A DNA stretch of 64,000 nt from Owenia fusiformis (Eukaryota > Annelida > Polychaeta > Sabellida > Oweniidae): the NCBI GenBank assembly GCA_903813345.2, contig CAIIXF020000012.1, forward strand, positions 27,666,684 through 27,730,683, in the 5' to 3' direction. How positions within the stretch are numbered: the first letter of the stretch is position 1; each line of letters begins with the position of its first letter. Position numbers and translations under genes: made by a program. This document shows, piece after piece, positions 6,888-62,300 of the stretch. The notes beneath the pieces were generated by a model. The model did not search any database. It had not been told where the DNA came from and worked only from the letters and a program-made list of their open reading frames with translations.

Positions 6888-7137
6888 TATCATTATTTGC
6901 GTTTGATCACATTAAAAACACATGACATGCATAATTTAATATCTTCAACTTAAACAGCAAAGAATCTGATATAATCACCATCGTGTGCTCTAGAAATACG
7001 ACGGTACTATTCTTTTTGGTTTTTAGACGTCGTGGCTCGCCTTTATAACTGCGTACTTTCATTGAAAATTGATGCGATCTCTACGTATAGGGTGTAACCG
7101 ATAAGCGTCTTTTAGGCCTACTCACAACACACAAATC
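6888..7137. other. Upstream region of sulfotransferase-like copy 1
   Basis: The last ~45 bp before the ATG (from TAACCGATAAGCG to ACAACACACAAATC) are shared with the sequence before the second copy at 13938. The duplication therefore included the 5' flank and is not a retrocopy starting at the message. No TATA box stands out. Confidence 0.5.
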
Positions 7138-7509
7138 ATGTGGAAGTTAAACGTAGCGGTTGCGTCAATAATGTTTGTATTATTGGTATATGGTTTCATC
7201 ATTAATTCCAAAGGCTATCAGCATATAAGAGAGACCAATAACAGGTTTAAGTTCTCCAAACAAAAGGATAAGTTAAGCCATATTGTGAACGAAGATGGGG
7301 AACAAATGCCGGAACAAATGATAACGCCCTTAAAGGAATCAACCATGCCGTTATTAGCATCGGGTGGTGCACGGAAAAGTCGCAAGCAGTCACTGTTATT
7401 TAGTCATTTCCCAAAAGCAGGTGGGTCGGAAATAAGGCATATATTAACTACAGTAGTTGGAGAGAGTATAAATGTTGACCAAAACAGGGGAATGTACAAA
7501 AATAACAGT
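7138..7509 (+). pseudogene. PAPS sulfotransferase-like gene, copy 1, truncated
   Basis: The start Met opens a short cytoplasmic stub (MWKLN) and then a hydrophobic signal-anchor (about residues 6-23), typical of type II Golgi enzymes. The stem region follows, and then SHFPKAGGSE (residues ~98-107), which matches the 5'-phosphosulfate-binding loop of PAPS-dependent sulfotransferases. Homology to the copy at 13938 stops abruptly at 7509; the frame then runs into minisatellite repeat and ends at 7614. The 3'-phosphate-binding motif and the rest of the catalytic domain are missing, and no splice donor leads out. It is most likely a truncated duplicate. The N-terminal frame is intact where copy 2 is shifted. 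Confidence 0.7.
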
Positions 7510-9000
7510 CTTTTTTCAACTTGCTTCAAATTGACTAAATTTTTTTTTCAAAATCATCTACATGTTCTCAGAAATTCAAATCTGACTTTAGATTTGACAT
7601 TTGACCTTCAATGACCTTCTCAAGGTCAAAAAAGGTCAAAAAGGTCTGTTTTCAACTTGCTTCAAATTGACTAAAAAAAAATTTCAAAATCATCTACGTG
7701 TTCTCAGAAATTCAAATCTGACTTTAGATTTGACTTAAGATTTGACATTTGACCTTCAATGACCTTCTCAAAGTCAAAAAAGGTCAAAAAGGTCTTTTTT
7801 CAACTTGCTTCAAATTGACTAATTTTTTTTTCAAAATCATCTACATGTTCTCAGAAATTCAAATCTGACTTTAGATTTGACATTTGACCTTCAATGACCT
7901 TCTCAATGTCAAAAAAGGTCAAAAAGGTCTTTTTTCATCTTGCTTCAAATTGACTAATTTTTTTTTTCAAAATCATCTACATGTTCTCAGAAATTCAAAT
8001 ATGACTTTAGATTTGACATTTGACCTTTAATGACCTTCTCAAGGTAAAAAAAGATCAAAAAGGTCTGTTTTCAACTTGCTTCAAATTGACCAATTTTTTT
8101 TTTCAAAATCATCTACATCTTTTCAGAAGTTCAAATTTGACTTTTACAAGTTCTCAGAAGTTCAAATCTCACTTTAGATTTGACCTTTGACCTTCAATGA
8201 CCTTCTCAAGGTCAAAAAGGTCTTTTTTCAACTTGCTTCAAATTGACTAATTTTTTTTTCAAAATCATCTACATGTTCTCAGAAGTTCAAATCTGACTTT
8301 AGATTTGACATTTGACTCTCAATGACCTTTTTAAGGTCAAAAAGGTCTTTTTTCAACTTGCTTCAAATTTACTTAATTTTTTTTTCAAAATCATCCACAT
8401 GTTCTCAGAAGTTCAAATCTGACTTGACATTTGACCTTCAATGACCTTCTCAATGTAAAAAAAGTCAAAGAGGTATTTTTTCAACTTGCTTCAAATTGAC
8501 GAATTTTTTTCAAAATCATCTACATGTTCTAAGAAGTTCAAATCAAACCTTCTTAATGTCAAAAGGTATTTTCCAACTTGCTTTAAATTGACCAAATTGT
8601 TTTAGGTGGTGACATTTTGTCATGCTAATGCCTTGTTTCATCTTGCTTCAAATTGACCAATTTTTTAAAAATCATCTACAAGTTATCAGAAGTTCAAATC
8701 TGACTTTAGATTTGAGATTAGACCTTCAATGACCATCTCAAGGTCAAAAAGGTCTTTTTCAACTTAATTCAAATTGATCAATTTTCTCAGAAAGTTCTCA
8801 GAAGTTCAAATCTTTCTTTAGACTTGAGATTTCACCTTCAATGACATTCTCAGGGTCAAAAAGGTTTTTTCTCTTTGCTTCAAATTGACCAATTTATTTT
8901 TTCAAAATCATCTACAAGTTCTCAGAAATTCAAATCTGACTTAAGATTGAACTAATGTGAGCAACTAGGTGGTGACATTTTGTCATGTTAATGCCTTGTT
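7510..9000 (-). mobile_element. Minisatellite-bearing Helentron/pearl-like element, copy A
   Basis: About a dozen ~125-150-bp units alternate CAACTTGCTTCAAATTGAC, a T-run, AAAATCATCTACATGTTCTC, ATTTGACATTTGACCTTC and AAGGTCAAAAAGGTC. The right end carries the family terminus GGTGGTGACATTTTGTCATG followed by TTAATGCCTTGTT (ending 9000). A second copy of that terminus sits inside at about 8604-8636, implying a nested or tandem insertion. The opposite, hairpin-bearing end is missing at the junction with the sulfotransferase gene. The same unit occurs in reverse complement at 44,754-46,469. Confidence 0.75.
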
Positions 9001-13867: not shown

Positions 13868-13937
13868 CCCGGGGCATAACCGATAAGCGTTTTAGCGGGT
13901 AGGCCTGCTCACAACCACGGTTCACAACACACAAATC

Positions 13938-14910
13938 ATGTGGAAGTTAAATGTAGCGGTTGCGTCGATAATGCTTGTATTATTGGCATATGGTTTCATC
14001 ATTAATTTCAAAGACTATCAGCGTATAAGAGAGACCAATGTCAGGTTTAAGTTCAACAAACAAAAGGATAACTTAAGCCAGATTGTGAACGAAGATGGGG
14101 AACAAATGATAACGCCCTTAAAAGGAATTAGCCATGCCGTTACTAGCATCGGGTGGTGCACGGAAAAGTCGCAAGCAGTCACTGTTATTCAGTCATTTCC
14201 CAAAAGCAGGTGGGTCGGAAATAAAGCATATATTGTCTACAGTAGTTGGAGAGAGTATAAATATTGACCAAAACAGGGGAATGTACAAAAATAACAGTAC
14301 AATTCTTGAGGATAACTACTTTCTTCAAACAGAATTTGTACCACTGGAGCCATATCAAAAATCAAATTTTTTCGTCATTGGGCATGTACGTTCACCGTGT
14401 AATTATCTACTGTCATTATGGGCATTCGGCTCGGACGGAAAAGGCGCTTTTTACCATTTGACAAAGGATAAAAGTGTGTATGGGAATACGCCTCCGTATA
14501 ATAACAAAGATGACCTAAAGAGATTCACCATGTGGCTACAAGACTATAAAGAGACATATACATATAGACTTGTTCACAAGTATTTCAAAAATAGCATATG
14601 GAAAACAGACCCAACTTTGAGCAATGCGGACTGCTGGGTTCACTCCGAAATGTTAATTTACGACTTGGTGAATTGCTTAAAACGATATGAAAAACAGGGG
14701 GGAAAAGTAAAATGGGAGAAATTTCATAAGATAGAGGTGAACGAGAATCCTAGTACACATTCCAAATGTGAGGATTATTTCGGCGATGGCAGAAAAGCAT
14801 TGGTGATGAATTCCAATGGAAATATGACAAAATTATTTGGATACGAGACCTGTTGTACGGAAAACAATAAAACGTTACCAGCAGAATTTAAAAAGTTCTG
14901 GATCAATTAA
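13938..14910 (+). pseudogene. PAPS sulfotransferase-like gene, copy 2, with N-terminal frameshift
   Basis: This is an intronless gene for a type II membrane sulfotransferase-like protein. From 13938 it reads the same signal-anchor as copy 1 (MWKLNVAVASIMLVLLAYGF). At 14120-14123 it has four A where copy 1 has three, which throws the frame off. The downstream frame, open from Met 14134 to the stop at 14910 (258 codons), carries the 5'-phosphosulfate loop (FPKAGGSE), the 3'-phosphate motif (GHVRSPCNYLLSLW) and a conserved-looking tail with four late Cys. Members of this superfamily sulfate glycans in the Golgi; the substrate here is unknown. Starting at 14134 would lose the membrane anchor. Either it is a recent pseudogene or the extra A is a homopolymer sequencing error. 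Confidence 0.75.
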
Positions 14911-22682: not shown

Positions 22683-23678
22683 TTAAAATTCTTTTAACAT
22701 ACGTTGACTCACAGAAATTTTAGTTTCTAATGAAAAGTCTAAGTATTGTAAATAAGCATCTGACTTCCAATCGCCATGATTCTGTATCAATTCCCCTGGT
22801 ATATTGGCTCTAAATGCCCATGTTGCCCCTCCCCTCCTACAACTATGCCCACTATATAACCTTGGATTATATCCTAAACAAAGGAGTTTTTCTCTAAGTT
22901 TTTCTGTGAAAGAAGTAGTGGTGTAAGTTGTGAGCTTATTATTTCTACTGGGCAAAAGAAAGGCAGGATCATTTTCCGAGGTTTTGTACTTGACATTAAA
23001 ACTGTTCATATGCTTATGAGCTGCCAAAATATCAAGCGGGGAACCCGGTTTTGAAATTATCGGAATGGTCAAAATTCTTTCTGCATTTTGATTTGTTTTA
23101 GAATGTTTGAAAAATACAAAGATTCCATTTTCACCTATAAAAATATCATGTTTTTGTAAGTGCTTATTTCGACAAAATTGTTTTGCTGTCCTAGGCAATA
23201 TGTTTCCTACTCTAGTGAAAGTTAAGACTACTGTGATCAAAAGGCACCAAAAAGTTGAATCTTCATGGTTACTAAATTCAATAATTGAGAAAATATGTAA
23301 TAGAATTTCCGGTGTAATTGGTAATGCTTTTCTCACTGTATGTGGTTTGATTCTTTTTAAACCCCTGACAAGTAATTTGTATTCATGGCTTTCTTGTAAA
23401 TTAGGAAATTTGACATTATTAAACTGATGTAGCAATTTGACTCCTTGTACATAGTTTTTAATGCTATCTACAGATTTGAATGTTCTACTCAAAAATTGCA
23501 TATAAACCAACAAGGTATCTAGCTGTACTGGTAGAAAATTGTGACCATAGTACATGCAAAACAATAAAAAGGACCTGAATTGTGTCTTGATATTTTTCCA
23601 TGTACCACTCGCAAAGGCTTGTTTCATGGTTTCTTTAACTTCCTCTTCTAGTTCTAGTTTTTCACCTAAAATTACCAA
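22683..23678 (-). CDS. Tyrosine recombinase of the Ngaro-like element
   Basis: 331 codons. The enzyme would integrate the circular DNA copy by strand exchange without a target duplication. The catalytic signature is visible: the first Arg in LTFTRVGNILPR (about residue 156), the box HSCRRGGATWAF (about 278-289), HGDWKSDAYLQYLD with the probable nucleophile Tyr, and an N-terminal SAM-like helical core-binding part (KNIKTQFRSFLLFC). It overlaps the upstream RT-RNase H frame by 7 nt. Its length fits the family, and no stops or frameshifts are seen. It is followed by ~460 bp of non-coding sequence and the 3' repeat. Confidence 0.88.
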   Translation of the reverse strand: MVILGEKLELEEEVKETMKQAFASGTWKNIKTQFRSFLLFCMYYGHNFLPVQLDTLLVYMQFLSRTFKSVDSIKNYVQGVKLLHQFNNVKFPNLQESHEYKLLVRGLKRIKPHTVRKALPITPEILLHIFSIIEFSNHEDSTFWCLLITVVLTFTRVGNILPRTAKQFCRNKHLQKHDIFIGENGIFVFFKHSKTNQNAERILTIPIISKPGSPLDILAAHKHMNSFNVKYKTSENDPAFLLPSRNNKLTTYTTTSFTEKLREKLLCLGYNPRLYSGHSCRRGGATWAFRANIPGELIQNHGDWKSDAYLQYLDFSLETKISVSQRMLKEF

Positions 23679-25948
23679 AACTCATTAAGTTTGATTAAAT
23701 TATCAGAAACATATCTTCTTGTTCTATTACCTAGTAACTTGATTGCTGTGTTTCTATGTATTGGGGCTTCCCACCATCTAGACAAATGATCGGAAATTCT
23801 ATTGTTAACACCCTCAATATGTACAGCTCGGATTTGAAAATTGTTGCAAGCAGCTAGGAAACTGATTTCTCTCAAAATTTTGAGCATGATGGAATCTTTT
23901 GATTTTCCAGAATTTAATACATCTACCGAAGCCTGATTGTCGCAAAACACTTGTATTCTGTTTCTGTTCCACAGAGCTCCCCATAATTTGCATGCTAGAA
24001 GTATAGCTAAAAGTTCCAATGCATTAATATGCCAATTTTTGTCACATTGCATGTACTCAGGTATAACAGTAGTATAATACTCATGAGAAGTGTATCCTCC
24101 CATGCCTACAAGGCAACTGTCAGTGGATACTAACTGATCAGGTTTTCTCCATTCAGTTTCGGGGATGACTGTTACGCCGTTATATTGAACTAAGAATGTC
24201 TTCCACCAGTTTAAATCTTTTTTGAACTGTGTTGAAAGCCTAAATTTGTGATTGCGTCTTTCGAGCTTTCTAAGTTGCGCAAAGAGTCTATTCATAAAAA
24301 CTCTGCTACCCCTGACACATTTTGAAACATAGTTCAATTTTCCTAACAGTTGTTCTAGTTCATTCCTTGTAGCAGATTTTTTACTTAGCCAGAGCTTTAG
24401 AATTGCATCTATCTCAATTAACCTGTCTGGAGTTACTGACATAGTCATACTGGTAGAACTGAACAAAATTCCTATAAAGGTCATATTTGAGCTAGGAGAT
24501 ATAAACTTCTCCTCTGACTCTCGTAAGCCTAATCTTTTCAGAATTTCTTTGAGACTGGCTACAGCATCGTCTACTTGACCTGGGGTTTCTACTCCTCCGA
24601 AGTCGTCTAAATAGTTGCATGCTTGAAAACCTTGATTTTGAAATATATATCTAACTGCGTCCGTAACTCTTTGACACATCATTGCAGCTGATCTAAGACC
24701 AAACGGTACAACTCTGTCAAAGAATAATTGATCTCTCCACACATAAACTACCTTATCGTAATCTAAAGGGTCAATTGGGATTTGTCTATATGCTCGACTA
24801 AGGTCAATTTTGTACATAGAGCTGTTATTCTTGCCTAATTTGACTATTAAAGAACTGAAATTTTCAGAAGTTGGTAATTTGAGTTGAAATTCTTCATTCA
24901 AATAGGAATTTTTTTCAATTCCGTCGTTGATGCCTTTACCTGGTGGAAAACTCAAATCTACTATAGTTCTTCTATTTTTGGATTCTTTCTTCTCCGCAGT
25001 ATTTAGCGGAGATACGAGAACTTTATGGTCAAAAGGGTTTTCTTTGAAAGGACCTACAGTGGCTCCTAACTTAACCTCTTTAGAGATAAATTTGTCAATG
25101 TCATTAGGAAAGGAGTGTGCTTTGCCATGATTTGTAGGATTTGAGTTATGTTGTATAACTCCTTTATGCCCTAATGGCCATCCAAATTCCAAAAATTCAA
25201 CTATTTCCTTGTCATGATAATTAGTTAAACCTTCCCTCCATTCATGAATATTTAAAGGGGTATTGAGTGATTTCCTAGCCTCTATGTAATTGAATTGATT
25301 TGTCTGACTAACTTGTTTATGCATTTCTAAATACTCGTTAGCATTTTGACTTAACTGTGGTGGCCATTCTGGAATTGCCGACTTTAAGTCTGTGGGTGTG
25401 ATTGGGAATGGTATGTGGTTGTGAGGTTTTGATTCCTCTTGAAAATGTGTTATAATAAAATTGTGTTGCTTGTCATGCGTGTAGTTTGCCTTTTTATGAG
25501 ACAAATCATTGTGTACTATGTACTGAGGATTTCTTTCCTCTGTGGGATGTTGCCCTAAATTGCAACTATCTACTACACTGTCTTTGTGTTTTAAAAAATT
25601 GTGCGTTGTGTTGTGGTCAAAATTGTGACGTTTCTGACATTTAAAATCTAGTCGTGATGAGTGTTGTGTATCTGGCGTGGTTGTATGCATGTCTGTCTTA
25701 ATAAAACTGTGTGTAAAATCGTAACTAGTACTACTATCTGGTAGTGGATCTAACAAAGCATTGCTATGTTGTGATGAATGTTGTGTATCTTGTGTTGTTG
25801 TATGCATGTCTGTCTTAATAAAACTGTGTGTAAAATCGTCACTTGAACTACTATCTGGTAATGAATCTAACAAGACATTGCTATGTGTCTGGAACAAAGC
25901 CAAATCCGAATTTGCCCTACTTACTCGGATAATTTGTGTAAGACACAT
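23672..25948 (-). CDS. Reverse transcriptase-RNase H polyprotein of the Ngaro-like element
   Basis: 758 codons. The first ~120 residues contain two tandem copies of a ~41-residue Ser/Thr/His-rich unit (LPDSS...FTHSFIKTDMHTTT). The reverse transcriptase lies at about 330-500: YKIDLSRAYRQIPI, the VPFGLRSA block and the YLDD active-site box. RNase H follows: STDSCLVGMGGY (catalytic Asp), NALELLA (catalytic Glu), FCDNQASVDVLN (Asp) and ISDHLSRW (final Asp), which is the DIRS-type order. It overlaps the end of gag by 32 nt in another frame, so translation probably needs re-initiation or frameshifting. It copies the element's RNA into DNA. Confidence 0.92.
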   Translation of the reverse strand: MCLTQIIRVSRANSDLALFQTHSNVLLDSLPDSSSSDDFTHSFIKTDMHTTTQDTQHSSQHSNALLDPLPDSSTSYDFTHSFIKTDMHTTTPDTQHSSRLDFKCQKRHNFDHNTTHNFLKHKDSVVDSCNLGQHPTEERNPQYIVHNDLSHKKANYTHDKQHNFIITHFQEESKPHNHIPFPITPTDLKSAIPEWPPQLSQNANEYLEMHKQVSQTNQFNYIEARKSLNTPLNIHEWREGLTNYHDKEIVEFLEFGWPLGHKGVIQHNSNPTNHGKAHSFPNDIDKFISKEVKLGATVGPFKENPFDHKVLVSPLNTAEKKESKNRRTIVDLSFPPGKGINDGIEKNSYLNEEFQLKLPTSENFSSLIVKLGKNNSSMYKIDLSRAYRQIPIDPLDYDKVVYVWRDQLFFDRVVPFGLRSAAMMCQRVTDAVRYIFQNQGFQACNYLDDFGGVETPGQVDDAVASLKEILKRLGLRESEEKFISPSSNMTFIGILFSSTSMTMSVTPDRLIEIDAILKLWLSKKSATRNELEQLLGKLNYVSKCVRGSRVFMNRLFAQLRKLERRNHKFRLSTQFKKDLNWWKTFLVQYNGVTVIPETEWRKPDQLVSTDSCLVGMGGYTSHEYYTTVIPEYMQCDKNWHINALELLAILLACKLWGALWNRNRIQVFCDNQASVDVLNSGKSKDSIMLKILREISFLAACNNFQIRAVHIEGVNNRISDHLSRWWEAPIHRNTAIKLLGNRTRRYVSDNLIKLNEFW

Positions 25949-27326
25949 TAGGATGTGTACATTTTAATTTTGAATGATTGGATTTGGTTTTGTCCCGTAC
26001 ATAGCAGTTTGAACAAATATGTTCTAACAACCTTGTTTGTCCCTTTATTGGTAGTTTTGACATGTGTGCAGAACTTTCATTGCAATTATCTCTATTGTAC
26101 TCTACACAATACCAACTGATCCTTTGACCCGTGTGAACTGAAGTATTATTGCTGACTTGTTTTTTATTGACAGACAAATGGCTGAAAATGTGGGTGGTAT
26201 CATCACCCCATGTCATTTCACCTGCTTCAATTTCACTGAGTATATTTGCATGAAAGTTCCGCACCTGATGCCAAGGATATCCCCTTTTGTTGATATACAT
26301 CAGTTCAATAATATGTTTCAGTTGGACTAACAATTCTCTCTTTGAAATGCTATGATTCTCAATCTCTTTCACCAATAGATTCAAAGCTCCTGCTGTGAAA
26401 AGATTAATGTCTAAATCGTTATACTTAATTTTCATTCTTGAAAATTCGTATTTCAACCCAATGTGCGGGTACTTTTGTGGATTTTGGCATGAGTTAGATC
26501 TTGTCTGGTTTATGCCTGACTTGGATTTTTTCTTTTTCTTTTTGGATTTACTTTTGACCTTTTTTGAATCTTTGGAATGATTTGAACTGCAAGAACTAGA
26601 AGTGTCAGAATCAGATGATTTTGTTTCAAATTCTGATTCACTGGACTCTGATTCTGTGGTTGAAAGAGATTCAGATGATGTAAAAGATTTTTTACTTGAT
26701 TTACATTTATATGAAATGTTTTTACCTTTCTTGGAACCAATGTCTTTGACTTTTTGTTTCTTCTTTTCTTTATTCTTCTTGGTCTCGTCAGTCTTTGTGA
26801 GTTCTGATTGTTTCTGGAAACCTGGAGCGATCTGTACTAGTTTTTGGCTAACCTCATCTTGTAGTCGCTGCATACCTCTTAATGTTTGAATGTTCAATTG
26901 TCTCTGCTTAGTTGTATCACCTTTGGTTTTGTTGGAACTATTGTACTTTGTTGTAGGATTCCTATGTAGCCCCGGTGCTATTTCATTTCGTCTGGCTTTC
27001 TTGGTATCGGTATCGGTAGCCCCTTCGTTGGAATCAGATTCTTGTGTGTCTCTGGATGTCTGGTACGATTTTTGTATGTCTTCGTCAATTTGACTCGATT
27101 CTTCTTCGAGATTTTTTAGGATTTGTAATTTCTTCTTTTCGATTTCCCGTCTCTTTCTCGCTATTTGTTCGTCTAGCGTTTCTGGTAAAGGAGCGGGGAG
27201 ACCTGTAGTTGCAGTTGGTTCTTTATTTTCACCTTCTGTTACCGTTTTTACATCAGTTTCGTCTTTCCCTTGGGAATTGAGTTTTTTATAGTCTATCGGA
27301 TTGTTTCTTTCTCTGAGTGTGGCCAT
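25917..27326 (-). CDS. Gag-like protein of the Ngaro-like element
   Basis: 469 codons. The first half is charged and low-complexity: a coiled-coil-like KRREIEKKKLQILKNLEEE stretch, a Ser/Glu-rich tract and a long Lys/Ser tract ending in KSKKKKKKSKS. The second half is folded-looking and ends with a Cys/His zinc-binding pattern (WYCVEYNRDNC ... HICSNCYV ... HSKLKC), as in gag proteins of DIRS-order elements. It probably packages the element's RNA. The start is the first Met after the 5' terminal repeat. Nothing is broken. Confidence 0.75.
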   Translation of the reverse strand: MATLRERNNPIDYKKLNSQGKDETDVKTVTEGENKEPTATTGLPAPLPETLDEQIARKRREIEKKKLQILKNLEEESSQIDEDIQKSYQTSRDTQESDSNEGATDTDTKKARRNEIAPGLHRNPTTKYNSSNKTKGDTTKQRQLNIQTLRGMQRLQDEVSQKLVQIAPGFQKQSELTKTDETKKNKEKKKQKVKDIGSKKGKNISYKCKSSKKSFTSSESLSTTESESSESEFETKSSDSDTSSSCSSNHSKDSKKVKSKSKKKKKKSKSGINQTRSNSCQNPQKYPHIGLKYEFSRMKIKYNDLDINLFTAGALNLLVKEIENHSISKRELLVQLKHIIELMYINKRGYPWHQVRNFHANILSEIEAGEMTWGDDTTHIFSHLSVNKKQVSNNTSVHTGQRISWYCVEYNRDNCNESSAHMSKLPIKGQTRLLEHICSNCYVRDKTKSNHSKLKCTHPNVSYTNYPSK

Positions 27327-27420
27327 TTTTTTTGTGAATTAGTTTCGTATTTATGGCTCTAAATGTCAAACTCGATTATTTCGTCTTGCCGTCGTACCGC
27401 CGTCTTACCGTCGTACCAGT

Positions 27421-28973: not shown

Positions 28974-31900
28974 CTAATATGGTCCAGGTCGTCCACGTCC
29001 GCCACTGAAAAAGAAAAATGAATTTGATTTTTTTTTCAAAGATAGATTGATCAGGAAATGATCTGGGTAAATCCCACGATTGTATAAGATGTTCCACTTT
29101 GCTTTAAATTTTGACTAAATGAAGATCAATATGAAGTCCAACAGACTACAGTTTTCAAATTCACTTGAACCAACTGCCACCTATGTTGCAACTCATCATA
29201 AACCTTGTTGATATCAAAATTGAAACAATTACACAATTTCCCAGAAAAGCGTAATTTATTGGGAAAAATATGAGAGAAAATGGCTAATTCCTGCTGTTTA
29301 TCAGACACCGAGATCTCTAATGACAGATTGATTCATCAATTATAAACTTACCGTCCTCCTCTATCTCCACCAAATCCTCTACCACCTCCACGACCACCAC
29401 CTCGTCCTCCTGAAACAAGAAACACACATATAAGTAGATTGAAATATTTATGTCATTAATAAATACATTTGTTACTAAAAAACTTTGGTAGGATGCACAT
29501 GTATATAATACTTTTTATACGGTGTTCAATCTTCATGTTTATATGTATATAAAACTTTTTTAAAATTTGTGCATATTTTTAAACTTTTGTATGAGTGAAC
29601 ATGTATTTAGTGCTTTTGTAAGTTTACATGAACATAATACTTTTATATGAGTGTTCATGTACATAATACTTTTTAATGACTGGAGTGTACCTGCTAACAA
29701 TATAAGAAGTCAATAATATTCTATAGAATTTTTTGACAGATGGGGATTAAAAAAAATGTTGACAATATCAGAAACTTTTGTAAAATCTTACCAAAACCAC
29801 CACCTCTGCCTCCTCTATCTCCACGGAATCCACCGCCACCACGTCCACCTCTGTAGCCTGAAAGCAAATTAGATGTTTTTCTTATCAGTCCAGTTAACAT
29901 CTTGAATCCCTGGCTCTAAAATTTGCTTGAAACCCGAGAATGTTTCATTTTTTCATACAGAACAGGTGATCATTTCTACACATTTGAAAACATAAATATT
30001 TTAGAGAAATTTTTTTGTAACTAAATAATGCATTCTATAGATTTCTAAAAGTCTTGTTTTTCATAAAATATTTTACACATAACAAGTATAATTCACTTCA
30101 TATAATAGAACAATCTTATTTGTATGTTCAGGTTTTTACATGTAATCTTCACGTAACTTCATAATTCACTTCATATAATAGAACAATCTTATTTGTATGT
30201 TCAGGTTTTACATGTAATCTTCTCATACCTCCATCACCACCTCCTGCACCTCCTTCTTTGGGACATTTACACCTATTACATTCATTCCTCCAAGCAAAGT
30301 TGTTATTTCCACATTCTGGGTTGGAACAATCCCAATCTCCCTCTCTGCCACTTCCGCCGCCGCCACCACCACGACCGCCTCCTCTTCCGCCACGATCTCC
30401 ACCACGGAAACCACCACCACCGCCACCACGTCCTCCTCTGAAGCCACCACCGCCAAAGTTGTTGTTCATTTTACGCCTGGCAATCATCACACGGATTGTC
30501 TGTCCTCGGAAATCTTTGTCTGGAGTAGAGTATACAAATTAAAGATTATAGCTGTTGATCTAACTTCAGTAAAATTCCAGTCTAAATGCAGGATTCCTTT
30601 AGAATATCAACAATGAAATTCAACAGGATTCAACAATAACATTTTAATTAATTAGCTTATTTGCCTGCTTAAAAAAACAGCAGATTTTGTAAAGGCTTGG
30701 ATCTGAACTACTTTCTGGATGGTTCTGTTGACACCTTTATAATAGGACTAAGCTAAAACTCATGTTGGATTTTAATGGTGGTAACTTATTTAAACTTTTT
30801 ATTTGTAAGAAATTCATTATCCTTGAAGTGTCATTCGTTGAACTTAATGTTAGGGGTTACTTCATCCTGGAGCTTCTTTGACCTTGGGTTATATTTTCAA
30901 TTCACGAAGTTGCCATGATTGCTTTTGAAAATTAAAAAAATTGAAATCTCCCGACAATCTAAGATGAACAACCAACCACAGGCAATATGAATCACCAGCC
31001 ATGGTCGATACAATCCCATGGTCGATATAACCCATGGTCGATATAATCCCATGGTCGATATAATCCCATGGTTGATATAATCCCATGGTCGGATTAGCCC
31101 CATGATGAAGTAACATCAATTATCATAAGTTCAATCTCTCTTGGACTCTTAGGGGTTACTATATGCAGTGTCCTCAGCTCTCATAATCACAGCTTCATTG
31201 AACCCCAACACAACCTAATACCAAAGTTGAGTATATAGAAGGGATGGAATTAAGACGGTGAAAGGAGATAGAAGGGATGGGTTGAGCAGGTAGAAATAAG
31301 AACAGAATAACGCAACTAAAGGAAATCATAATTTACAAAAGCTTTTGAAAAGGTATTTGGTTGTGGCGGGTTCTTAGCATTTAGTTCACATCACTGGACA
31401 CAGAGGGCTCTGATCTCCACAGTATTGAAGCAAGGGGTGAGTAATAGAAGTAACACTTAATTCAACTATCATGTACAGCTCAATGAAACTAAACTGAATT
31501 CTGCAATGACAAGTGTCAATCCAATCCTTTATTTGAGCAATTTATTTTTGGAAAATTCTCTTGGAAGCAATTCTTTTGATGCAATTTAGCAAAATGAAAT
31601 ATTTCCCTGTACAATGCTGCCCCAGTTTTGCTACAAAGAGATCAATCATCAAAGGAGTCATTCTAATTACTTGCACGATACTTTTATTTGTACTGATGAG
31701 GGACATCTACCACACAGGTATTAACAAGGCATTAACATACAAAATGTCACCACCTGCCTTTTATTGACAATGCCCCTCTAACACGGACGGTTGTCCACAA
31801 AAAAGTTGGCAAATCTACAATATGTCATCACTTGTGGTGGTGACAAAATAACAATATGTCACCACTTGTGGTGGTGACGAAATAACAATATGTCACCACT

Positions 31901-51073: not shown

Positions 51074-52474
51074 TTATGCTAAGCTAGGAAACAGCTCTGA
51101 AAGACCAGTAAATGAGTCATCCCATACATTGTCTTCATTTAATACAGATGATGTGTCACTATGAGATGACATGCCGTCACTATGAGGAGACATAGCATCA
51201 CCATAGTCACTTGTTGTACTTGAATAACCAGATTCACTCATAGATACAGTTGAAAGTTTAGTTGCCTCAACTGCGCTCCATAGTTCAGAAACAGAGTCTA
51301 CAACATCAGGCGTATCAAGTACAGATGCTTTTCTCTTTCGAGAGTTTTTACTTTTCACATCTGTGGGGGCTACACTTTTGATTTCATAGATGTCATCATT
51401 AGACTTAGAAACAGTTTCTTCCATATCAGAGAGCAAGTCCAAATCATCTTTCATAAGGGCTTCTATGTCCTTGAGTTGAGACAGAGCCTCTTCTGAGAGG
51501 TCTAATGTTACATTTTCCATTGAAAGAACATTGTCAGTTTCCTGCTTTTTAGTGTTAATTTGTGGGGTCTCTTTTATGGGAGTTTCAGACTTGTAATATT
51601 CATGATCGAATTTTATAAGTTCATTGAGGGATTCCAACTCTTTTGCTGTGGTCCCCACCATATTGTTGGTGTCTTTTTGGATGGTGATGGTTTCAGGGGT
51701 CTCAGAGATTTGGTCAATCGCTTTGGGGTCTTCAATTTGGGCGAGGATGTCCAGCCATACGTCAGACTGAGTATCGCTAGTACCGAGATGAATGACATCG
51801 TCATCTTGTAAAGGGCCTGCACTCTGTCCTGCTGCGGAGGAGAGAGTACTGCTGACTCAGGGAGTACAGGCTCTTTCTTGATTTCGACATCGACATCACC
51901 AGTGACTTGCATACCCAGACGTTCGCGGAGCTGAGCATTTTCAAGCTTCAAATGCGACGTTTGTGTCTTCAAGCGATTGTTTTCGTTTACCAGTTGCTTG
52001 TTAAGAGTTTCCATGTCTGAAAGCTGTTGTTCCAGAGTGTCCATTCTCACTTTTTTTCGATCACGTGCAGTCTGAGCAGCAACTCTGTTTTTGAGCTTCC
52101 TGAAAATATACAATGAAACAATATTTTGTAATTCACATATATGACTGCTCTTATATCACAAAAAATGACTGATCACTTCAGTAATGTTTGAGGAAGTGAC
52201 ACACCCACTTCTGAGAAAATTCAAGAAAATTCTTTGAAATCCAATAGCTTTTTTTGTTAATTACCTTCATAGTAATGTAATTAAATTTTTACCTGCGCAT
52301 TATTTTTTCATCTGGTGTCAAATGTGTCAACCTTCGTCGTTTTTTCGGCTCCATATCGTGAAGAAGAGATTCGGCTTGTGAAAACTGAGTCGGCGAAAGA
52401 TTCAGAGATGCCAACGATGCCTGGGTCTTTTTACCCGGCATAGTGGTTACAAGGATTGTGTGTTGAGCTACCAT
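51074..52474 (-). CDS. XBP1: XBP1, IRE1-spliced isoform (XBP1s), 396 residues
   Basis: bZIP transcription factor of the unfolded protein response. Exon 1: 52474-52293; spliceosomal intron 52292-52100 (GT-AG); exon 2: 52099-51074, minus the 17-nt unconventional intron 51851-51835. Total 1191 nt, in frame. The basic region KLKNRVAAQTARDRKK (about 62-77) is as in human XBP1 and is followed by a Leu zipper to ~125. After the splice, XBP1s-like segments follow: ESAAGQSAGP, SDVWLDILAQIEDP, VGTTAKELESLNELIKFDHE, SGYSSTTSDYGDAMSP and the tail WDDSFTGLSELFPSLA, closely like the human activation domain. In the nucleus it switches on ER chaperone and ERAD genes. The start at 52474 has A at -3 and G at +4; Met 52441 is an alternative. 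Confidence 0.95.
51613..52474 (-). CDS. XBP1: XBP1, unspliced isoform (XBP1u), 222 residues
   Basis: Same exons without removal of the 17-nt segment: 52474-52293 joined to 52099-51613 (669 nt). After the bZIP the frame gives a hydrophobic stretch (MTMSFISVLAILSLTYGW), corresponding to the HR2 segment that brings the nascent chain and its mRNA to the ER membrane. The C-terminus, IWWGPQQKSWNPSMNL, resembles the translational-pausing peptide of human XBP1u (W-G-x-x-x-x-SW-x-P-x-MN). In vertebrates XBP1u is short-lived and restrains XBP1s (known). The conserved tail argues that the pausing mechanism works here too (inference). Confidence 0.88.
51835..51851 (-). other. Predicted 17-nt IRE1 intron of XBP1 mRNA
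   Basis: On the message the two cut loops read CAG^CAGU (stem GAGU/ACUC) and CCG^CAGC (stem UCCU/AGGA). Both are 7-nt loops with the CNG^CNGN pattern recognised by IRE1. The excised piece is CAGTACTCTCTCCTCCG, 17 nt. Removal shifts the frame by the same register as the 26-nt vertebrate and 23-nt worm and fly introns, and joins the two frames that match human XBP1s. The second stem can extend past a C-C mismatch into sequence shared with the first stem. Confidence 0.85.
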
Positions 52475-52635
52475 CGTGTTCCTTGGATATTCCTCATCAA
52501 AATGTCACAATCTGCAACAATTTTTGTTCCCTCAAATGGGAATAAATCGTGAAAATCTGGTCCGTCTTCTGATTTACATTTTCTTAGATCGTTCAGTATT
52601 TTATGTGATGAGTTGGAAGGTCGTGTCGATTTCTG

Positions 52636-52683
52636 ATTGGTCGCTAGAATAACATTGACGTCATATCCCAGGCATTTGATTGG
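52636..52683 (-). promoter_or_regulatory. Candidate XBP1 promoter: CRE/ATF site between two CCAAT boxes
   Basis: On the minus strand: CCAAT at 52683-52679, the palindrome TGACGTCA at 52663-52656, and CCAAT at 52640-52636. This is ~160-210 bp upstream of the start codon. CRE/UPRE-like sites plus CCAAT boxes are typical for ATF6/XBP1/NF-Y control of UPR genes (known), but the exact ERSE spacing CCAAT-N9-CCACG is not present. Confidence 0.5.
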
Positions 52684-52855: not shown

Positions 52856-53262
52856 CACTGGCGGATCTGTGTGTGTGTGTGGGGGGGGGGGGGGGGGGGG
52901 GGGCAGGGGCCCGTCTCCCCCTTGGGTGGGCCCAGAAAAAAAAATTGGGCCTAAAATGTTGAGCCAAAAAAGGCTTTAAGGCCCCAAAATGTGGGCCTTG
53001 TAGGTCATAAATGGGCCTTTAAGGCCTGACTTTTTGATTTAGGCCATACAAATCATTTGAAGATTATTGGCCTCAAAATTTCAATAGTTGGGCCCACTTT
53101 TTTGTTTCAGGGGCCCAAATTTTGAAAAAGTAAGGCCCATTTTTGCTAAATTGGCCAAAAGGCGCATTTTTGAGCCCTTACAAAATTTTGAGGCCCTTAA
53201 AAATAAAACAAAAATCTGGGACCACTAAAGGGCGGGCCCCATGCGCCCCGGATCCGTCACTG
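52856..53262. mobile_element. hAT-like MITE rich in GGCCC words
   Basis: It begins CACTGGCGGATC and ends GGATCCGTCACTG. Near the left end lies a GT run and a G-run of about 27 bp. The body repeats TTGGGCCTAAAATG, AAGGCCC and GGGCCCA words as in 11952-12983. A target duplication is not clear. Confidence 0.6.
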
Positions 53263-59349: not shown

Positions 59350-62300
59350 ATGGCTAACCGAAAAGCTAGCGATGAAAGTCTGTTCCGTATTCCCCCATAT
59401 TACTATCTCCATGTACTGGACCAAAATACCAATGTTACAAGGCTCGAGATTGGCCCAAAGACATATATCCGACAGGATAATGAAAGGTGGGTAATCTGGT
59501 AGACCTGACAGAGGGGAGGGAGGGGGGGGGGTATGCCAATTTCATTTTTATGTCACCACCACAAGTGTTGATATATTGTTATAGTTACCAACTTTTTATT
59601 GATGGTGTTTGGCAATTGTTGTTTGGTGGTCAGCAGTTGTTGTTCAGCTTTCAGCATCTATAACAAATGGCAGGTGGTGACATTGTGCATGTTAATGCCG
59701 TGTTATTCTATGGGTTTGGCTAAATAAGTAATAGTCTTACATGTGCACCATTCTTTAATTGCTTTCATAGCTGAGAGACATCTCCATTCACTCTGCTCCT
59801 GATGAACGCAGTCAAGACTGAGCATGCGACACTAACTGAGAGTTGCTTTTTATTTTTGTTACGTATTCAGAATTTATTATGCACAAATATACTTTTCAAA
59901 ATGAGTGGTTCACTCCATAATTTCCTAAAGTCGCTGCTGCATTTTTACATTTTTAATATTTAGAGTTAATTTCACTCCAAATTCAACAGCTCTCATTTTC
60001 ATCAGCATAAAGTACAGAATATTTACTGAACATGTGTTTTGATTGCAAACAAATATATCTGCTGAAACAATATAGAACGATCGTAAACGCTATCCCCAGT
60101 ATTAACCTTTATTTGAAATTGCCATACAGGGTTGTATTTGGGCCAGAGAAAATGATAGTGGTTCCTCCAAGACACTACACAGTCATTGAGAACCCTATCA
60201 GTAAAGACAAAGATGGCAGGATCGTTTTTGATACAAGTGGACAGGCAAAGCTCCAGCATGCCGATCAAGAGATTAGACTCGCCCAGGACCCATTCCCGCT
60301 ATACCCTGGTGAAGTTCTGAAACAGGTTAGCATTCTTCCAGCCTTATTCAGTGGTAATATTACCTTTATTGGCTCAATTTTGAAATTTTCAGCTGAAAAT
60401 GCAAGAATTCTAAGAATTTTTTGTTTAAGACATATTGCCACCATGTTTAAGACATATTGCCACTTTGTAACACTTTTGAATATTGAAGTTTAAAGAACTT
60501 CAACCTAATAGTATTACTCAATTTCGATTGGTCAAAGGCTGGTCGATAGTTTTCTTTGTCCAATTTACAATGTCTTTAGGGGAGACATCAAAAGTTCGAT
60601 GTCGGATAGAAAACTAAATAAATCTAGTTAGGGGGGAGGGGGTTCAAACCCATTTCAGTTTGCTATCTGATAAATTTCAACATTTCAAATTTTTGGCAAT
60701 TTCAACTCAGAATGCCTTGGAATGGTTTAAAAATAAAGATTTTACCTGATGCTTTCTTCGTTAAGATCATTCCAATGGATTCTATTCTATCAATAGTTGT
60801 TAAAAGCCGCAAATTACGATAGGAATTAACAAAAACTAGATCGTGTTTAGCAATAATTTTTCAAATTCTCAAACTGGAAGTAAGCGATCAACTTTCACGG
60901 TATTTAGTTTTGGGGGGGAGGGGGGGGGGGTCTGAGTCAAAACTAGATTTATTTAGTTTCCGATCCGACATCGAACTTTTGATGCCTCCCCTTAACTTAT
61001 AATGTCAACAGTCAATTTCGAGAGAGGCCAATAAATATATCTTTATTATCAGAAAGAAAATGTGTTAAAATATTCTCAATTTTTCCAGGCTGTGTCCCCA
61101 TTGAAAGTTGTGATCGCTAATACGGCACTGCGATTGCGCTCCATCCTGGACTTTGAGGATGATGAAGGCAACAAACGAACTGCTGGTAGGTTGTTTGAGA
61201 TTTGATGTCAGGTCATAATATTCATTGAGATTTAATGTCAGGTCATATGATTCATTAAGACTTTATGTCAGGTCATATGATTCAATTTAGATTCAATTTT
61301 GTGTCAGGCCATTTACATTCGAGGAGACTTTTAGGCCATAGTAATCAATGAGACATGATGTCAAGTCATAATTTTCAGTGGATTTGATGTCAGGTTATTA
61401 TAGTATTGTTATCAAGCATATTTGATATTCAATCACAATATTTACAACTAACATTCAGTTGATATTCGAAAAAGCCACAAAAATTAAATTTGAGATCATA
61501 TGTCAAATTCTAAACATGTACAACTTATTCTCTCATATCCACTTGTAGGTGATGAATGGTTATTCGAGGGACCAGGGACATATATTCCTCGTAAAGAGGT
61601 CATGGTTGAAGAAACAATTAGAGCTACTATCGTTAAATCTAACCAGGCTATTAGACTACGGGCGAGAAAGGTATTTTTTATCCATCATTTTTTCAGTCAT
61701 ACAAATATTAATAATGTAGTACAAAATGTATTGAAGAGACCCCTTTCTTTTAGAAATTAATATGCCAATTGACAAACAATTTTGATGAATAAAATAATTG
61801 AAAAGTGAGACATTTTTCTTCATATTACACTGTAGGTCAGGGTAGGAGCTTTATAAATTCGAGGTGGACTTTAAAAGTGATCGGTGACAATATTGATTCC
61901 TAAAAAATGAAAAGTGACAAATATTGTATTCAAGGAGTACATAAACAAATCAGGGGAGGAGTGTGTGTGCATTTGACCCTGATCCCAAAATTGACACACA
62001 TGATCGCTAAAAAATTAAAAAGTTGCAAATTTTGTATTCCAGGAATGCGTAGACAGGTCAGGGGAAGACCGTGTAACTGGTGAGGAATGGCTATGGAAGA
62101 AAACAGGAGCCTACCTACCCGGAGCTTACGAGGAAGTAGTCGATATAAACGACGCATATGTACTCACAGAGAAGGTAAGAACACACAGATTGTGTTTTAA
62201 CTTTGGAAATTATTTTTATTTGAATGGAATATAATGGCTGAAAAAGAGATAAGTTTATTTTGACAAAATATCGGAGTCTCCGATGATTCTCAAAATTTTC

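What the first reader, a model, noticed from the sequence alone, without database searches (positions are those of the whole stretch)
51830..51865. XBP1 with a predicted 17-nt IRE1 intron, shorter than the textbook 23 or 26 nt
Seen: two 7-nt loops of CNG^CNGN type (CAG^CAGU, CCG^CAGC) on short stems, 17 nt apart, with 17 mod 3 = 2 as in the known cases. Removing 17 nt joins two long frames that match human XBP1s end to end. Known: 26 nt in vertebrates, 23 nt in C. elegans and Drosophila. The two hairpins compete for ACUC if the second stem extends (about 11 pairs around one C-C mismatch), so the RNA fold could itself be a switch.
Basis: partly seen in the sequence, partly recalled or inferred. 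Interest (0 to 1): 0.9.

Follow-up and report, generated by a model that had tools for sequence, protein, structure and literature searches.

The report
XBP1 with a 17-base IRE1 intron
This is an ordinary animal stress-response gene, XBP1, whose message is very probably cut by the enzyme IRE1 to remove 17 bases, a shorter piece than in humans or flies but a length already reported for moths and beetles.

Summary
On the minus strand lies an XBP1 gene with two 7-nt CNG^CNGN hairpins whose cut sites are 17 nt apart, 51851-51835. Removing these bases joins the bZIP frame to a long frame that aligns with human XBP1s. Rfam RF04247 matches at 37.1 bits, below its gathering score of 41; no other match is reported in the genome (75 of 6685 candidates scored). 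Shuffles gave no such pair, 0 of 5000 twice. IRE1-type RNase and RtcB exons exist.

The length is not new: PMC13027231 (passages) reports 17 nt for Lepidoptera and Coleoptera. The proposed fold switch is not supported: its outer pairs have probability about 0.01, a 10-bp outer clamp 0.98-1.0.

Added: the unspliced protein keeps an HR2-like stretch and 8 of 13 residues of the human arrest peptide's end, more than the overlapping frame forces (18 of 20,000 resamplings reach it). By arithmetic, 17 nt is the shortest frame-changing intron that leaves both hairpins 4-bp stems. Splicing was not observed; the organism is unidentified.

The parts
52293..52474 (-). XBP1 exon 1, coding part from the ATG at 52474 (182 nt)
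   Evidence: open frame and GT donor at 52292
52100..52292 (-). ordinary GT-AG intron inside the bZIP region (...IMRR|KLKNRVAAQ...)
   Evidence: GT at 52292, AG before 52099
51074..52099 (-). XBP1 exon 2, coding for the rest of both XBP1u and XBP1s
   Evidence: bZIP_1 1e-09 over the first 54 codons of the part scanned
51835..51851 (-). predicted IRE1 intron, 17 nt, phase 1
   Evidence: RF04247 match over 51811-51875
51844..51858 (-). 5' splice hairpin, loop CAG^CAGU, 4-bp stem GAGU/ACUC
51827..51841 (-). 3' splice hairpin, loop CCG^CAGC, 4-bp stem UCCU/AGGA
51862..51871 (-). 5' arm of outer clamp, GCCUGUACUC
   Evidence: coordinates; pair probabilities 0.98-1.0; an outer stem is also part of RF04247
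51815..51824 (-). 3' arm of outer clamp, GAGUGCAGGC
   Evidence: as above
51751..51798 (-). HR2-like hydrophobic stretch of XBP1u (MSFISVLAILSLTYGW), not in the XBP1s frame
   Evidence: best 15-residue Kyte-Doolittle mean in XBP1u 1.95 (from residue 160), against 1.86 for human HR2 taken from PMC6624018 and 0.65 for the best in XBP1s
51619..51657 (-). XBP1u C-terminus resembling the human arrest peptide (WGPQQKSWNPSMN)
   Evidence: 8 of 13 identical to human; 18 of 20,000 in the overlapping-frame null
51613..51615 (-). stop codon of XBP1u
51074..51076 (-). stop codon of XBP1s

Best explanation
This is the animal's XBP1. Under ER stress IRE1 cuts the two hairpin loops after CAG and CCG and releases 17 nt (51851-51835); the exon ends are joined, probably by RtcB. 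The loss shifts the reading frame: the joined message gives a 396-residue XBP1s with the XBP1s-type C-terminus, the uncut message a 222-residue XBP1u. A 10-bp clamp just outside the two hairpins holds both sites together. XBP1u's hydrophobic stretch and arrest-like C-terminus probably hold ribosome and message at the ER membrane. Shown from sequence: gene, frames, loops, predicted clamp, presence of enzyme exons. Inferred: that cutting, joining, pausing and stress induction happen.
For: RF04247 match 37.1 bits, E 1.2e-4 in 4001 bases, 8.8e-6 in 301 bases; only match reported in G000, E 0.0034, 75 of 6685 candidates scored. Chance tests 0 of 5000, 0 of 5000, 3 of 20,000. Post-junction frame scores 136 against human XBP1s, best of 1000 shuffles 65 (human letters recalled); with the human stretch printed in a paper 63, 0 of 500 shuffles reach it. 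Longest open stretch 256 codons in 771 nt, at most 141 in 1000 dinucleotide shuffles. Ribonuc_2-5A exons on C9 with TYKGSSVRDLLRAMRNK and KHHYRELP; RtcB exons on C5, 7 matches. One match to the XBP1s C-terminus in G000, at this place.
Against: RF04247 score is below the gathering score; at the loose limit used (E up to 10) the model also rings in 7 of 14 control genomes, in none over the cut-off. The minimum-energy fold (-26.4 kcal/mol with 35-nt flanks) lacks the two 7-nt hairpins; the twin-hairpin fold lies 1.8 kcal/mol higher, with mean pair probabilities 0.245 and 0.124. The recalled human stretch has a gap of 3.6, but its second hairpin has probability 0.978, much higher than here. A CAG^CAGG motif 3 nt further on would keep the frame with 20 nt. 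IRE1's kinase and luminal parts were not sought. No RNA data and no XBP1 DNA of a related species were available.
Confidence: 0.93

Rival explanations
1. IRE1 cuts the 3' site one codon later (CAG^CAGG), removing 20 nt; the frame is joined equally well and XBP1s is one residue shorter.
For: CNGCNG also occurs at coding position 450; 20 mod 3 is 2.
Against: No stem of 3 bp or more flanks that 7-nt loop; only the sites at 430 and 447 have one. The RF04247 alignment puts CCGCAGC in the loop.
Confidence: 0.04
2. The two hairpins and the extended 11-pair second stem form an RNA switch that turns splicing on or off.
For: The alternative 11 pairs around one C-C mismatch exist, helped by GUACUC occurring both outside and across the intron start; alone this hairpin folds at -14.0 kcal/mol.
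Against: In context its outer seven pairs have probability 0.007-0.018, while the outer clamp, which uses the same 3' GAGUGC, has 0.98-1.0; the fold forced to hold the extended stem is -22.9 against -26.4 kcal/mol. No comparative evidence.
Confidence: 0.04
3. The site is a decayed or unused relic and XBP1s is not made by splicing.
For: No expression evidence was available; RF04247 score below gathering.
Against: The post-junction frame stays open for 256 codons and aligns with XBP1s nearly to its last residue; loops and stems are intact.
Confidence: 0.02

Closest known systems
Human XBP1, 26-nt IRE1 intron (length and letters recalled, used)
   Same: 7-nt CNG^CNGN loops, frame change, bZIP, XBP1s C-terminus, HR2-like stretch and arrest-like C-terminus
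   Different: here 9 nt (three codons) shorter between the cuts; stems of 4 bp with a 2-nt linker, against 6-bp stems drawn for the recalled human stretch
XBP1 of Lepidoptera and Coleoptera, 17 nt (PMC13027231, passages read)
   Same: same predicted intron length and CNG^CNG motif
   Different: their letters were not seen, so any closer likeness or kinship is untested
XBP1 of Diaphorina citri, 23 nt, confirmed there by cloning and sequencing (PMC13027231)
   Same: mechanism, CNG^CNG loops
   Different: 6 nt longer
Rfam RF04247, bZIP non canonical Hac1/Xbp1 intron
   Same: outer stem plus two hairpins align from model position 1 to 72
   Different: score 37.1 under the gathering score of 41; deletions before the first hairpin, between the hairpins and in the second hairpin's stem

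Membership tests
IRE1-spliced XBP1 | XBP1-type bZIP domain | tested here: met
   bZIP_1 1e-09; KLKNRVAAQTARDRKK shared with human XBP1 (human letters recalled)
IRE1-spliced XBP1 | two 7-nt CNG^CNGN loops on stems | tested here: met
   but these hairpins are not in the minimum-energy fold
IRE1-spliced XBP1 | intron length 2 mod 3 that joins two long frames, the second matching XBP1s | tested here: met
   17 nt; 396-aa product
IRE1-spliced XBP1 | IRE1 RNase and a ligase in the same genome | tested here: met
   Ribonuc_2-5A exons, RtcB exons; whole gene models not built, kinase and luminal domains not sought
IRE1-spliced XBP1 | stress-induced removal of the intron from mRNA | not testable with these tools
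   no RNA data
Rfam RF04247 (automatic membership) | score at or above the gathering score of 41 bits | tested here: not met
   37.1 bits; so not filed as an Rfam member by threshold, although E is 8.8e-6 locally
XBP1u arrest peptide | residues optimal for arrest in human: Y241, P244, W249 to H252, W256, P258 (PMC6624018, passages) | tested here: inconclusive
   4 of 8 kept (W249, G250, W256, P258); R251 is P, among the natural variants named in the paper; H252 is Q; Y241 and P244 are S and T in the ungapped alignment (sequence). L246, needed together with W256 (PMC4138184, passages), is T.

The most novel reading that the evidence does not exclude
17 nt is a floor: with 7-nt loops cut after the third base, the length is 7 + the two stems + linker, so with 4-bp stems and a length of 2 mod 3 nothing shorter than 17 is possible. 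This animal and the reported moths and beetles would have reached the floor separately, with an outer clamp making up for the short stems, while XBP1u's arrest peptide was kept in the overlapping frame.
Probability: 0.35. Interest if true: 0.45.

Novelty: new member of a known kind. Interest (0 to 1): 0.3.

Why it matters
It would be a natural, nearly minimal substrate for testing what IRE1 needs: two 4-bp hairpins two bases apart, held by an outer clamp. It suggests that the textbook lengths 23 and 26 are points in a series 17, 20, 23, 26 set by frame and stem length, and it adds one more animal in which the ribosome-pausing C-terminus of XBP1u may be kept. None of this changes the picture of the pathway.

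Tried and rejected
Plus-strand fold: the gene is on the minus strand, so dropped. 20-nt intron: kept as a weak rival. A local alignment of the whole unspliced tail with human is weak, 4 of 500 shuffles reach it; the last 13 residues carry the signal, and I chose them after seeing the tryptophans line up. A PDB search with 162 residues of the unspliced protein gave 17 matches up to E 1, 14 of them other bZIP proteins and 3 weak unrelated chains, none named XBP1.

Organism: no COX1 match in G000; no Bindin match, with no control ringing either; the SSU rRNA search gave a machine error twice. Because of the 498 Mb and large contigs numbered up to C12 I tested the annelid Owenia fusiformis against a paper (PMC9539403, passages and section 6). 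For: Forkhead matches fall on 9 contigs, all within C1-C12, with two tandem clusters (on C8 and C10), where the paper has 9 of 12 chromosomes and two chromosomes with tandem foxQ2 genes; I did not test that these clusters are foxQ2. Against: the numbers of the chromosomes differ (another assembly could explain that), the long Forkhead open frame on C5 shows by eye no RING or RAWUL domain, and the 3 RAWUL matches, none over the cut-off, are not near Forkhead matches. The organism is left unidentified. That insects lack major vault protein is recalled, and is my only reason to doubt that this is an insect.

Print: 10 paper searches, several with capped lists (one search showed 20 of 35, 30 of 246, 15 of 4,479). 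I opened six papers. By term I looked for 17 nt or 17 nucleotides in two: PMC13027231 (found for XBP1) and PMC7356129 (found for another subject). The passages that I saw of the other four (PMC4891664, PMC6624018, PMC4138184, PMC9539403) do not mention it. The survey by Hooks and Griffiths-Jones (2011) is not held, so lengths printed there are unknown to me.

Full report
What is there. The minus strand of the window carries an XBP1 gene: start at 52474, a GT-AG intron 52292-52100, and a second exon with both alternative tails. The bZIP region is clear (bZIP_1 1e-09). The unspliced frame ends at 51613 after 222 residues. A second frame runs to 51074.

The splice site. Read on the minus strand, the RNA is GAGU CAG^CAGU ACUC, two bases, UCCU CCG^CAGC AGGA. 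The cuts bound 51851 to 51835, 17 nt. Taking the 17 nt out joins the frames into a 396-residue protein. Its post-junction part scores 136 against the human XBP1s tail, best of 1000 shuffles 65 (human letters recalled). With the human stretch printed in PMC6624018 (section 15 read) the score is 63 and 0 of 500 shuffles reach it, the best being 55. The first 41 residues do not align locally with the human protein, and several gaps are needed.

Chance. Such a pair of hairpins (4-bp stems, 10-60 nt apart, 2 mod 3) occurs in 0 of 5000 dinucleotide shuffles of the coding region, in 0 of 5000 of the local stretch, and in 3 of 20,000 synonymous permutations of the unspliced frame; it is the only pair at 10-60 nt on either strand of the window. 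Rfam RF04247 matches 51811-51875 with 37.1 bits, below its gathering score of 41: E 1.2e-4 in 4001 bases, 8.8e-6 in 301 bases. Over G000 it is the only match reported, E 0.0034, but only 75 of 6685 candidates were scored, and at the loose limit of E 10 the model also rings in 7 of 14 control genomes, in none over the cut-off.

Fold. With 35-nt flanks the outer clamp, 51871-51862 with 51824-51815 (one of its ten pairs is U-G), has pair probabilities of 0.98-1.0. The twin hairpins lie 1.8 kcal/mol above the minimum in each flank tried (25, 35, 60, 120 nt), with mean probabilities 0.245 and 0.124. The recalled human stretch also lacks the twin hairpins in its minimum (gap 3.6), though its second hairpin is strongly predicted, 0.978, unlike here. 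So the fold test neither proves nor excludes splicing. The 75-nt and 201-nt stretches fold better than most shuffles: 3 of 200 and 1 of 200 do as well.

Machinery. G000 has Ribonuc_2-5A exons on C9 with the motifs TYKGSSVRDLLRAMRNK and KHHYRELP; that these hold IRE1 catalytic residues is recalled. A third, weak match with a stop inside lies on C10 and was not followed. IRE1's other domains were not sought. RtcB exons lie on C5. One match to the XBP1s tail is reported in G000; gaps in the assembly could hide another.

The unspliced tail. XBP1u has a hydrophobic stretch as strong as human HR2 and ends in WGPQQKSWNPSMN-L. The human peptide is WGRHQPSWKPLMN: 8 of 13 identical. When the overlapping spliced frame is resampled with synonymous codons, the mean is 3.3 and 18 of 20,000 reach 8; the five residues W249, G250, S255, W256, P258 together are kept in 0 of 20,000; the unspliced frame stays open in 332 of 20,000. 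Against it: Y241, P244 and L246 are not kept (sequence), and the tail as a whole aligns weakly, 4 of 500 shuffles reaching its score. PMC4138184 (passages) already argues that HR2 and the pausing region are shared with Drosophila, so this is an extension, not a discovery.

What is known. PMC13027231 (passages) confirms 23 nt in Diaphorina citri by cloning and sequencing and reports, by alignment, 23 nt in most of the species it compares and 17 nt in Lepidoptera and Coleoptera. So the length has been printed before. That vertebrates have 26 nt is recalled and agrees with the recalled human stretch.

Verdict. An XBP1 with a short IRE1-type intron: clear in sequence, new only as a member. The arithmetic floor of 17 nt and the strong predicted outer clamp are the parts worth a test.

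Noticed in passing
window 51619-51657 (-): XBP1u C-terminus resembles the human ribosome-arrest peptide beyond what the overlapping XBP1s frame forces.
   Followed up: yes
window 52622-52663 (-): Upstream of the start codon: CCAAT-N9-ACACG, one base off the ER stress element (consensus recalled; the pattern was loosened after seeing the sequence), and TGACGTCA; possible self-activation of XBP1.
   Followed up: partly
window 51862-51867 and 51844-51849 (-): GUACUC occurs twice, in the outer clamp and in the 5' splice hairpin; it is why an alternative second stem can be drawn.
   Followed up: yes
window 22683-27338 (-): Three adjoining long open frames, by eye a recombinase-like, a reverse-transcriptase-like and a gag-like frame, resembling a DIRS-type retroelement; not searched.
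   Followed up: no
window 7105-7614 and 13896-14910 (+): Much alike frames that look like neighbouring carbohydrate sulfotransferase copies (by eye).
   Followed up: no
window 60011-60490 (+): Major vault protein exon (Vault_2, 1e-23).
   Followed up: partly
window 30152-30538 (-): RanBP-type zinc finger with RGG-like repeats (PF00641, 1.3e-08), FET-protein-like by eye.
   Followed up: partly
window 52881-52903: Poly-G run after a TG repeat, about 0.4 kb upstream of the XBP1 start codon.
   Followed up: no
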